The notes below the pieces were generated by a model. It worked only from the letters and a program-made list of their open reading frames with translations, did no database searches and was not told the DNA's origin. Positions 15-1,402 of a stretch of 64,000 nt of DNA are shown one piece after another. The position numbers were made by a program, and so were the translations under genes. The stretch comes from an uncultured bacterium (lineage in GTDB: Bacteria > Bacillota > Clostridia > Oscillospirales > Oscillospiraceae), in assembly GCA_947383145.1 (NCBI GenBank), contig CANDCH010000008.1, forward strand, positions 1 through 64,000. Reading direction: 5' to 3'. Positions within the stretch are counted from its first letter, which is position 1; each line of letters begins with the position of its first letter.

Positions 15-47
15 ACACTCTTTCCCTACACGACGCTCTTCCGATCT
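15..47 (+). other. Illumina adapter sequence (artefact)
   Basis: Thirty-three bases match the standard Illumina read 1 adapter exactly, ending in the familiar CTCTTCCGATCT. This is not biological sequence. It shows that the window starts at an untrimmed contig end, so bases 1 to about 47 should be ignored and any gene crossing the left edge cannot be interpreted. Confidence 0.97.
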
Positions 48-591: not shown

Positions 592-1026
592 TCAGTCGAA
601 GGCGATGTAGAGGTAAACGATGTTCTGTTGGTTGGCGTAGGCGTTGGAGTTGCGGACTTGAAATCCGCCGTCCACAATTTCCACCACCCGGGAGTTGAGG
701 TTGCTCTGATAGCAGTAATAGGCGGAGGTGGCCATGAAGCCGCCGCCGGGGTTGCGGGTGTGGATCAGCACGACTTTTGGGGTAAACCCCAGGCGGATGA
801 GCTGGGTGGCGGACGAATCGCCGTTGCCGGTGTAGGCTCCGGCCACGACATGCTTCGCCTCCAGCTTGACCAGGCGCTGGTCCAGGGCGGCGCCGGCGGT
901 CTGGGCCTCCGCCCGGGCGGCCTCCACGGCGTCCTCCAGAGCCTGGGCGTTCTGGTTGAGGGGGTCCGGGGAAAAGGTGTCGGACGTCTCGATGAGATTC
1001 AGGTTGTAGGTCTCGGTGTGTTGCAT
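592..1026 (-). CDS. Phage tail-fibre-like protein
   Basis: The protein has 144 residues when started at the ATG at 1026, which is preceded by a strong AAAGGAGGAG ribosome site. The first third contains a short alanine/glutamate-rich helix (ALEDAVEAARAEAQ) of coiled-coil type. The rest is beta-rich, with the AGAYTGNGDSS...LGFTPKVVLIHT pattern common in C-terminal domains of phage tail fibres and receptor-binding proteins. No other phage gene is adjacent, so it is either a relic of a prophage or a host-adopted surface-binding domain. Its ribosome site lies inside a perfect inverted repeat (1031-1058), which suggests translational control. The family assignment rests on style rather than on a diagnostic motif. 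Confidence 0.55.
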   Translation of the reverse strand: MQHTETYNLNLIETSDTFSPDPLNQNAQALEDAVEAARAEAQTAGAALDQRLVKLEAKHVVAGAYTGNGDSSATQLIRLGFTPKVVLIHTRNPGGGFMATSAYYCYQSNLNSRVVEIVDGGFQVRNSNAYANQQNIVYLYIAFD

Positions 1027-1030
1027 GATG

Positions 1031-1097: not shown

Positions 1098-1126
1098 TTG
1101 ACAAATCCGCAGCCGGAGGGTATAAT
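1098..1126 (+). promoter_or_regulatory. Perfect consensus sigma-A promoter (rightward)
   Basis: TTGACA at 1098-1103, a 17-base spacer and TATAAT at 1121-1126 are an exact match to the housekeeping consensus. No good protein-coding gene follows directly. The predicted start is near 1133, and an intrinsic terminator lies at 1207-1245, so the product would be an RNA of about 110 bases. Confidence 0.8.
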
Positions 1127-1132
1127 AAGCAT

Positions 1133-1245
1133 AGAGAGCCCCGTGTTTTGTTCACCCGGGCAAGCGGTTTGGCTCCTTAAAGTGTGGCTGGACTACAAAC
1201 TGCGTAGACGACCGTCACTTGTCGGAGTGGCGGTCGTCCCTTTTT
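1133..1245 (+). ncRNA. Candidate short antisense RNA
   Basis: This is the stretch between the consensus promoter at 1098-1126 and the hairpin plus T5 at 1207-1245. It carries no plausible ORF. It is complementary to the 3' part of the minus-strand transcript from the promoter at 1374-1402, including the last codons of the 27-residue ORF at 1215-1298. That layout matches antisense antitoxins of type I systems such as RatA and SR4. Expression is inferred, not seen. Confidence 0.5.
1207..1245 (+). terminator. Intrinsic terminator
   Basis: GACGACCGTCAC at 1207-1218 pairs with 1227-1238 (12 bp with one G-T pair, 8-base loop). The stem is followed by CC and five T residues on the plus strand. The hairpin overlaps the 3' end of the minus-strand small ORF. 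Confidence 0.75.
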
Positions 1246-1298
1246 ACCCGTACAGTCACGGTAAAACCGTAAACATGAAAAGTCAGGGTTATGGGCAC
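1215..1298 (-). CDS. 27-residue peptide, candidate type I toxin
   Basis: This small ORF starts with GTG at 1298, behind the ribosome site AAAGGGGGTGAG. The peptide has a 17-residue hydrophobic and beta-branched stretch (PITLTFHVYGFTVTVRV) followed by a charged tail (KRDDRHSDK), an outline shared with many small type I toxins. The hydrophobic part is weak for a membrane helix. Its stop lies inside the terminator hairpin of the opposite-strand RNA. The strong promoter at 1374-1402 drives it. It is too short to prove coding from sequence alone. Conservation of the peptide in relatives would decide. Confidence 0.45.
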   Translation of the reverse strand: MPITLTFHVYGFTVTVRVKRDDRHSDK

Positions 1299-1373
1299 AT
1301 ACTCACCCCCTTTCGGGTTTGAGTAACCAAACCGCCTGCCGTTGCCGGGCTCCCTCACACGGGACCCGGTATT

Positions 1374-1402
1374 ATTTTATACGATTTGACATAAAAAGTC
1401 AA
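1374..1402 (-). promoter_or_regulatory. Strong sigma-A promoter (leftward)
   Basis: On the minus strand TTGACT (1402-1397), a 17-base spacer and TAAAAT (1379-1374) form a near-consensus promoter. Its -35 box overlaps a TTGAC...GTCAA inverted repeat (1386-1402), whose other arm offers a TTGACA facing the gene at 1434. Confidence 0.7.

What the first reader, a model, noticed from the sequence alone, without database searches (positions are those of the whole stretch)
1098..1402. Candidate type I toxin-antitoxin locus or new structured RNA with promoters firing toward each other
An exact consensus promoter (TTGACA-17-TATAAT) fires rightward and a near-consensus one (TTGACT-17-TAAAAT) fires leftward, only about 250 bases apart. 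The leftward transcript carries a 27-codon ORF with a strong ribosome site buried in a GNRA hairpin. Its two ends pair in three blocks, as in folded toxin mRNAs. The rightward transcript ends at an intrinsic terminator overlapping the ORF's 3' end, the layout of txpA/RatA-type antisense control. The locus sits beside mobile-element genes. The weak hydrophobicity of the peptide is the main argument against a toxin; a raiA-like RNA is the chief alternative.
Basis: partly seen in the sequence, partly recalled or inferred. Interest (0 to 1): 0.8.

Follow-up and report, generated by a model that had tools for sequence, protein, structure and literature searches.

The report
Hidden RNA-controlled toxin gene family
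This small stretch looks like one copy of a large, so far unnamed family of toxin-and-RNA-antidote genes in gut bacteria, in which one shared RNA framework carries at least three different small toxin-like peptides, one of an unusual kind.

Summary
Window 1098-1402 has two convergent promoters, a leftward 27-codon ORF (GTG 1298 to TGA 1215), a Shine-Dalgarno in a GAAA hairpin, 5'-3' end pairing, and a predicted ~113-nt rightward antisense RNA ending over the ORF's last codons. No Rfam family matches (not raiA). I collected 170 distinct copies from Oscillospiraceae, other Clostridia and viral contigs. The peptide is under codon-level constraint. The antisense promoter scores at least 10/12 in 153 of 161 copies with flanks (exact in 114); the sense promoter is weaker. 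Closing helix and hairpins covary. Neighbours differ. Antisense-only and tandem antisense units exist. The same framework carries other ORFs: 31-aa-type membrane peptides (26 loci, same genus) and Hol_Tox-like peptides (15 loci, 14 in the genus). This exchange is the best argument that the window ORF is a type I toxin. The peptide differs from textbook type I toxins: no transmembrane helix; cationic, amphipathic beta-strand pattern. Pfam, NCBIfam, PHROGs, PADLOC and the papers listed by my searches gave no name for it. Toxicity, transcripts and antisense control remain unshown.

The parts
1374..1402 (-). Sense (toxin mRNA) promoter TTGACT-17-TAAAAT, 10/12
   Evidence: corresponding promoter at least 10/12 in 102 of 161 copies
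1327..1368 (-). 5' arm of the mRNA (predicted start about 1368), pairs with the 3' arm at 1136-1173
   Evidence: native 5'-3' pairing -37.7 vs swapped -27.2 kcal/mol in 135 copies; covarying pairs
1301..1324 (-). Hairpin ACTCAAACCCGAAAGGGGGTGAGT with the Shine-Dalgarno in its stem, GAAA loop
   Evidence: one double-sided covarying pair
1215..1298 (-). Toxin-like ORF, GTG start, 27 codons plus TGA: VPITLTFHVYGFTVTVRVKRDDRHSDK
   Evidence: pN/pS 0.33 (27-codon class) and 0.17 (25-codon class) in the part before the antisense overlap
1136..1173 (-). 3' arm of the mRNA closing helix (also the template of the antisense RNA's 5' end)
1098..1126 (+). Antisense (antitoxin RNA) promoter TTGACA-17-TATAAT, exact
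   Evidence: exact in 114 of 161 copies, at least 10/12 in 153
1133..1245 (+). Predicted antisense RNA, about 113 nt, complementary to the mRNA 3' region and the last ~9 codons
   Evidence: inferred from promoter and terminator; model R1 has a match in 33 of 42 genomes of the genus
1207..1245 (+). Intrinsic terminator of the antisense RNA; its stem overlaps codons DDRHSDK and TGA, its T-tract is the complement of the V-K-R codons
   Evidence: covarying stem pairs

Best explanation
A type I toxin-antitoxin module. A weaker leftward promoter makes a ~235-nt mRNA for a 27-residue cationic peptide. As the RNA is made, its ribosome site folds into a GAAA-capped hairpin; when complete, its 5' and 3' ends pair into a long closing helix, giving a compact, poorly translated RNA. 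A stronger rightward promoter makes a ~113-nt antisense RNA that covers the last codons and the 3' region of the mRNA. Its 5' end resembles the mRNA's own 5' arm, so it can displace that arm and form a long duplex, silencing the mRNA (probably through RNase III, as for TxpA/RatA; inferred). If the DNA carrying the module is lost or antisense synthesis stops, surviving mRNA is translated and the amphipathic beta-type peptide, by analogy with the membrane peptides carried on the same framework, would damage the membrane. Shown here by comparative sequence: ORF constraint, promoters, RNA structures, antisense overlap, framework sharing. Inferred: transcription, duplex formation, toxicity, membrane target.
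For: Peptide conserved with pN/pS 0.33 (27-codon class, 412 pairs) and 0.17 (25-codon class, 411 pairs) upstream of the antisense overlap, shifted frames 1.0 to 2.9. Antisense promoter at least 10/12 in 153 of 161, exact in 114; sense at least 10/12 in 102 of 161, exact in 12. Closing helix: native pairing better than swapped partners in 92.6% of 2700 comparisons, present in 73 of 74 MFE folds; 15 of 29 consensus pairs have double-sided compensation: 8 in the closing helix, 1 in the SD hairpin, 6 in the terminator stem. Neighbours: 285 neighbour ORFs fall into 233 clusters, largest 5, so it is no leader of one gene. 22 of 137 untruncated pattern hits lack a full-length ORF of this class but keep a good antisense promoter, against 4 intact ORFs scored without one; on a second look 3 of the 22 may still encode a related or other peptide, and 15 have no SD-preceded small ORF at all. 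Same framework with membrane-type peptides: 26 and 15 of 54 weaker model hits; a class-A 5'-UTR profile finds 21 of 26 class-B 5' UTRs at median 21.7 bits and 0 of 520 shuffles. Class C matches Hol_Tox in 9 of 10 members, below Pfam's cut-off. 20 of 24 viral-contig hits carry the ORF (my count); neighbours include tape-measure, antirepressor and FtsK-type genes.
Against: No expression or toxicity data. The peptide lacks the transmembrane helix typical of membrane type I toxins: 1 of 159 peptides passes 1.6 in a 19-residue Kyte-Doolittle window. ORF decay is a larger mutational target than promoter decay, so the asymmetry is only supportive, and the 22 shrink to at most 19 on a second look. Of the 4 apparent antitoxin-less intact ORFs, L174 has an exact promoter farther away, but L209 keeps a good toxin promoter while its antisense promoter spacer is shortened. 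Removing the mRNA 3' end in silico does not free the SD (unpaired probability 0.30 full, 0.28 trimmed), so AapA-type activation by 3' trimming is not supported. 5'-UTR homology to class C is weak (4 of 15 detected), and class C end pairing beats shuffles clearly in only about half. Class B pN/pS is only 0.57, shifted frames 0.77 and 1.22.
Confidence: 0.84

Rival explanations
1. Antisense-controlled small peptide that is not toxic: a regulatory or signalling micropeptide, or a moron-type fitness peptide, kept low by a cis antisense RNA.
For: Peptide constrained but lacks a transmembrane helix; two copies looked at in an annotated record lie between core genes (jag-TatD and PNPase-HTH in Vescimonas fastidiosa).
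Against: The same RNA framework carries two other peptide classes that look like membrane type I toxins; antisense-only relics and tandem antisense genes are expected for toxins, less so for a useful peptide; no conserved neighbour.
Confidence: 0.11
2. The conserved unit is mainly a noncoding RNA gene (the rightward RNA), acting in trans, and the ORF is secondary.
For: The antisense gene is strongly conserved and exists alone; no Rfam family.
Against: Codon-level constraint of the ORF outside the overlap; TGA kept in 170 of 170 copies (the hits were found by peptide profile, so an ORF is built in); three ORF classes placed at the same spot.
Confidence: 0.03
3. Known structured RNA such as raiA, or a promoter pair arising by chance.
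For: Long-range pairing resembles large structured RNAs.
Against: No Rfam match at gathering level and no raiA at relaxed threshold; recurrence in 170 copies.
Confidence: 0.01

Closest known systems
TxpA/RatA, BsrG/SR4 type I modules (Bacillus subtilis prophages)
   Same: Convergent toxin and antisense genes with antisense over the toxin gene's 3' part (layout of RatA and SR4 recalled), prophage contexts (PMC6563280, sections headed 2 and 3 read); class C peptides of the same framework resemble the Hol_Tox family.
   Different: Window peptide is 27 aa without a transmembrane helix; closing 5'-3' helix over the whole mRNA; no sequence relation found by Pfam or NCBIfam.
AapA/IsoA (Helicobacter pylori) and hok/Sok
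   Same: Toxin mRNA with 5'-3' long-distance pairing and SD-sequestering hairpins, multicopy (PMC6733600, passages read).
   Different: Here the SD hairpin is local and stays closed on 3' trimming in silico; antisense covers the 3' half of the mRNA (position of IsoA recalled as nearer the 5' half); peptide is not an alpha-helical membrane peptide by hydropathy.
C. difficile CD2517.1-RCd8 and related modules
   Same: Clostridial, convergent overlapping type I modules, several on prophages (PMC6563280, section headed 2 read).
   Different: Toxins of 34-59 aa with a transmembrane domain and charged C-terminus; I made no direct sequence comparison with them beyond the family libraries.
zor/orz antitoxin-only loci of E. 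coli
   Same: Antitoxin gene without its toxin (PMC11264685, abstract read).
   Different: Here antitoxin-only genes also occur as head-to-tail tandem units next to a complete module.

Membership tests
Type I toxin-antitoxin system | Small translated toxin ORF (under ~60 codons) with its own promoter and RBS | tested here: met
   codon constraint, conserved promoter and SD (by sequence)
Type I toxin-antitoxin system | Antisense RNA gene overlapping the toxin mRNA, with strong promoter and terminator | tested here: met
   (by sequence; transcript not observed)
Type I toxin-antitoxin system | Toxin inhibits growth; antisense RNA counteracts it | not testable with these tools
   needs expression experiments
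Membrane-associated type I toxin (Fst/Ldr, TxpA, Ibs, AapA and like) | Hydrophobic alpha-helical transmembrane segment | tested here: not met
   1 of 159 peptides passes the hydropathy threshold; beta-type hydrophobic moment instead (2.07 vs 1.03 shuffled, residues 2-10). Class B and C relatives on the same framework do have a hydrophobic segment (where hydropathy was also part of the selection rule)
Known families in Pfam, NCBIfam, PADLOC, PHROGs | Profile match of the window peptide class | tested here: not met
   4 representative peptides; the only listed match is a zinc-ribbon profile at E 0.14, below cut-off
Hol_Tox (PF16935), for class C relatives only | Score above the gathering cut-off | tested here: not met
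   9 of 10 members match at E up to 0.5, best E 6.1e-4, 20.0 bits, cut-off 23.3: sub-threshold resemblance
AapA/IsoA-like control | 5'-3' long-distance interaction in the toxin mRNA | tested here: met
   (prediction and covariation)
AapA/IsoA-like control | 3'-end trimming frees the SD | tested here: not met
   SD unpaired probability 0.30 full vs 0.28 trimmed (thermodynamic model only)
raiA motif RNA or other Rfam family | Covariance-model match | tested here: not met

The most novel reading that the evidence does not exclude
A clostridial superfamily of type I toxin-antitoxin modules built on one exchangeable RNA chassis (folded mRNA plus antisense RNA) into which at least three unrelated toxin ORFs have been swapped, including the first type I membrane toxin that works as an amphipathic cationic beta-hairpin instead of a transmembrane helix; the antitoxin gene multiplies on its own as tandem and solo units, possibly as anti-addiction elements acting across modules.
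Probability: 0.45. Interest if true: 0.87.

Novelty: new variant of a known kind. Interest (0 to 1): 0.78.

Why it matters
Searches for type I modules have leaned on small transmembrane peptides or homologues of known toxins (as described in PMC6563280); this family would be missed that way. In the one annotated record I looked at (Vescimonas fastidiosa) no listed gene lies under the copies, although that gene table is incomplete. If right, it shows that the RNA control part of a toxin-antitoxin module can be inherited separately from the toxin, makes toxin exchange directly testable, and offers a simple DNA signature for finding more modules in common gut bacteria. A beta-type peptide would widen what a type I toxin can be.

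Tried and rejected
raiA or another Rfam RNA: rejected. Leader peptide or attenuator of a downstream gene: rejected because neighbours differ; the most frequent neighbour, a tail-like gene, follows 5 copies (L001, L002, L062, L063, L069). Plasmid or phage copy-control antisense: no match in the annotated phage collection (one DNA and one peptide query), and two copies lie between core genes. AapA-style SD release by 3' trimming: not supported. Structure model of the peptide: not obtained. Class-wide peptide search: 5 of 391 genomes pass E 0.01, and only the window's own genome gives near-full-length matches; the antisense model passes E 0.001 in 6 of 199 genomes of the phylum sample. The DNA search reports 133 of 199 genomes at E up to 1, many of them short chance-level matches; I relied on the long ones.

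Rows dropped before counts: one search used 81 of 89 peptide hits (full length, E below 1e-12); one search used 161 of 170 copies (flanks long enough) and 135 of 161 for the pairing test; one search kept 74 representatives of 161 (both promoters at least 10/12, length 185-260, under 85% alike), of which 53 went into A2 and 42 into A5; one search counts 137 untruncated of 149 pattern hits, and re-examined the 22 without a full-length ORF; two searches looked at 54 hits that I picked (the weaker or not yet seen ones), giving 26 class B and 15 class C; the other 13 are class A copies, antisense-only units or unclear.

Full report
1. The observation. The two promoters, the ORF, the SD hairpin, the end pairing and the terminator are where the finding puts them. 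The leftward RNA folds far better than shuffles (z -5.2). The ORF starts at GTG 1298 and stops at TGA 1215. The antisense RNA should run from about 1133 to 1245. Terminator-like sites as such are not rare in the region (6 found, 4.8 expected), so the weight rests on recurrence.

2. A family. A DNA search of 199 relatives found copies of up to 80% identity over nearly the whole length in the same genus. The 27-aa peptide matched in 50 of 199 genomes at E up to 1 (the weakest may be chance), often in several copies per genome. From these, from pattern scans of genome contigs (119 stretches, scan stopped at its limit, some chance matches) and viral contigs (24, of which 20 show the ORF), and from two plasmid-collection loci, I collected 170 distinct copies, all ending in TGA: 119 ATG, 46 GTG and 5 TTG starts. 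Named records with the ORF include Vescimonas fastidiosa, Gemmiger formicilis, Evtepia gabavorous, Pseudoflavonifractor capillosus and a Dysosmobacter MAG. In the Vescimonas record no gene is listed under the matches, but that gene table is incomplete by the tool's own statement. A class-wide peptide search gave 5 of 391 genomes, with near-full-length matches only in the window's own genome.

3. The ORF is a gene. In the codons before the antisense overlap pN/pS is 0.33 (27-codon class, 412 pairs) and 0.17 (25-codon class, 411 pairs); shifted frames give 1.0 to 2.9. The consensus is MPIT-TFHI---TVTI-VK--NRHSAK, with 25-residue forms starting MRITLHIG. Four representatives match no family above cut-off in Pfam, NCBIfam, PADLOC or PHROGs.

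4. The antisense gene. In 161 copies the opposite-strand promoter scores at least 10/12 in 153 and is exact in 114; its predicted start lies a median 66 nt beyond the stop. The sense promoter scores at least 10/12 in 102 and is exact in 12; the 5' UTR has a median of 67 nt. Control on the first 81 copies: exact antisense promoter 79% observed, 0% in shuffles. The antisense terminator stem lies over the RNRHSAK codons (DDRHSDK in the window) and its T-tract is the complement of the preceding V-K codons, so the end of the peptide is constrained twice.

5. RNA structure. Native 5' and 3' arms pair at -37.7 kcal/mol on average, against -27.2 with arms swapped between diverged copies and -22.0 with shuffled arms (135 copies, 2700 swaps, 92.6% won). 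The closing helix is in 73 of 74 MFE folds. RNAalifold on 53 copies gives 29 pairs, 15 with double-sided compensation: 8 in the closing helix, 1 in the SD hairpin, 6 in the terminator stem. The antisense gene consensus just after its -10 (..GCGAnAAGCGGTTnAGCCC) resembles the mRNA 5' consensus (GGGCGCTGC...AGGCGGTTnGGCC): both are complementary to the mRNA 3' arm, so the antitoxin could displace the mRNA's own arm (inferred). In-silico removal of the mRNA 3' end does not free the SD, which argues against a direct copy of the AapA mechanism described in PMC6733600 (passages read). That RNase III silences TxpA in B. subtilis I know from recall and from the title and abstract start of PMC3531473 in a listing.

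6. Context and decay. 285 neighbouring ORFs of the 161 copies fall in 233 clusters. Among 137 untruncated pattern hits, 85 have an intact ORF and good antisense promoter; 22 lack a full-length ORF of this class but keep the promoter; 4 have an intact ORF scored without it and 2 are borderline; 24 have neither or are unclear and include unrelated taxa. A second look at the 22: 3 may still encode a related or other peptide (L136 a shortened form, L182 a hydrophobic peptide ending in KKK, L224 a longer form), 4 have only partial or unrelated ORFs, 15 have no SD-preceded small ORF. Of the 4 opposite cases, L174 has an exact promoter farther out and L209 is a real exception. The ORF is the larger target, so this is support, not proof. 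13 of 161 copies have another terminator hairpin within 700 nt downstream. Antisense-only genes occur as solo units and as head-to-tail units abutting a complete module, for example L002, G004:C43 and G002:C6. Shore et al. (PMC11264685, abstract read) report orz antitoxin-only E. coli.

7. One chassis, several toxins. A covariance model of the antisense gene (R1, 42 sequences) matches 33 of 42 genomes of the genus at E up to 0.01 and 6 of 199 of the phylum sample at E up to 0.001. Among weaker hits the peptide is different. Of 54 hits examined, 26 (all in the genus) encode a membrane peptide of type MGNGRWAKVLRF..., mostly 31 residues, and 15 (14 in the genus, one in G767) a peptide of about 25-29 residues ending in basic residues, type M.YVTFSDLIQIG...KKK. 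All 41 exceed a Kyte-Doolittle 19-residue mean of 1.9; a threshold of 1.4 was part of the selection rule. Class C resembles Hol_Tox in 9 of 10 members, below cut-off, and weakly ComI, PepG1 and, less tellingly, SecE-type models. Because R1 does not cover the 5' UTR, the 5' UTR is an independent test: a class A 5'-UTR profile finds 21 of 26 class B 5' UTRs (median 21.7 bits) and none of 520 shuffles; for class C 4 of 15, at about 5 bits, and none of 300 shuffles. Class B end pairing is -44.4 native, -36.7 swapped, -21.2 shuffled; class C -35.1, -31.4, -24.9, with about half below the 5% point of the shuffles. So the shared chassis is clear for B and likely for C. Class B codon constraint is modest (0.57 against 0.77 and 1.22 in shifted frames). 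The window's own genome has class A in the window (C8) and on C28, and class B on C16.

8. The peptide. It is cationic (mean net charge +5), not hydrophobic (GRAVY -0.19); 1 of 159 distinct peptides passes a transmembrane threshold. The hydrophobic moment at 170 degrees is 2.07 against 1.03 for shuffles in residues 2-10 and 1.69 against 0.96 in the second segment (151 peptides), while at 100 degrees there is no excess. This is the pattern of two amphipathic beta strands; a hairpin is inferred. No structure model could be made. A review describes membrane-associated type I toxins as alpha-helical, with cytosolic SymE and RalR as a separate group (PMC8309996, passages read).

9. Novelty. Searches of the paper library for five peptide words (0 papers) and for combinations of type I toxin or toxin-antitoxin terms with Faecalibacterium, Lachnospiraceae, beta-hairpin, Oscillospiraceae, Oscillibacter and general terms listed no paper whose title or abstract start describes this family; three of these listings were cut (20 of 34, 20 of 610, 10 of 34). 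The library lacks most subscription papers and preprints. The system works like a type I module; membership of the kind is met on architecture and untested on toxicity; the toxin class fails the helical-membrane feature.

Noticed in passing
window 15-47: The contig begins with a sequence that I recognise (from memory) as an Illumina adapter, so the first ~50 bases are probably an assembly artefact.
   Followed up: no
window 592-1029 (-) and L002 about 2018-2452: A phage-tail-like gene follows 5 copies (L001, L002, L062, L063, L069), differing strongly in its C-terminal part between the window and L002 (by eye); module plus tail-like gene may move together.
   Followed up: partly
L294 (G004:C43:1-6200): One contig carries a class A module, two class B modules and two antisense-only units within 6 kb: a cluster of toxin-antitoxin units.
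   Followed up: partly
L112 (UBA3287 contig): Four hairpin copies about 450 bp apart; three have the class A ORF, the first does not.
   Followed up: partly
L182:255-330: A class A-type hairpin preceded by a hydrophobic ORF MKFTVTVVVEFLDCVLRIVFKKK that stops just before it: a possible hybrid between toxin classes.
   Followed up: no
L209:5284-5370: Intact ORF with good sense promoter whose antisense promoter has a shortened spacer: a possible antitoxin-less toxin, or an assembly error.
   Followed up: partly
L237, L240, L249, L232, L250: Copies on IMG/VR contigs beside an antirepressor, an FtsK-type protein, tape-measure genes and an MmeI-like restriction-modification protein.
   Followed up: partly
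L314, L329, L309:125-240: Further weak matches of the antisense model with other or no small ORFs, suggesting that more toxin classes or relics may exist.
   Followed up: no
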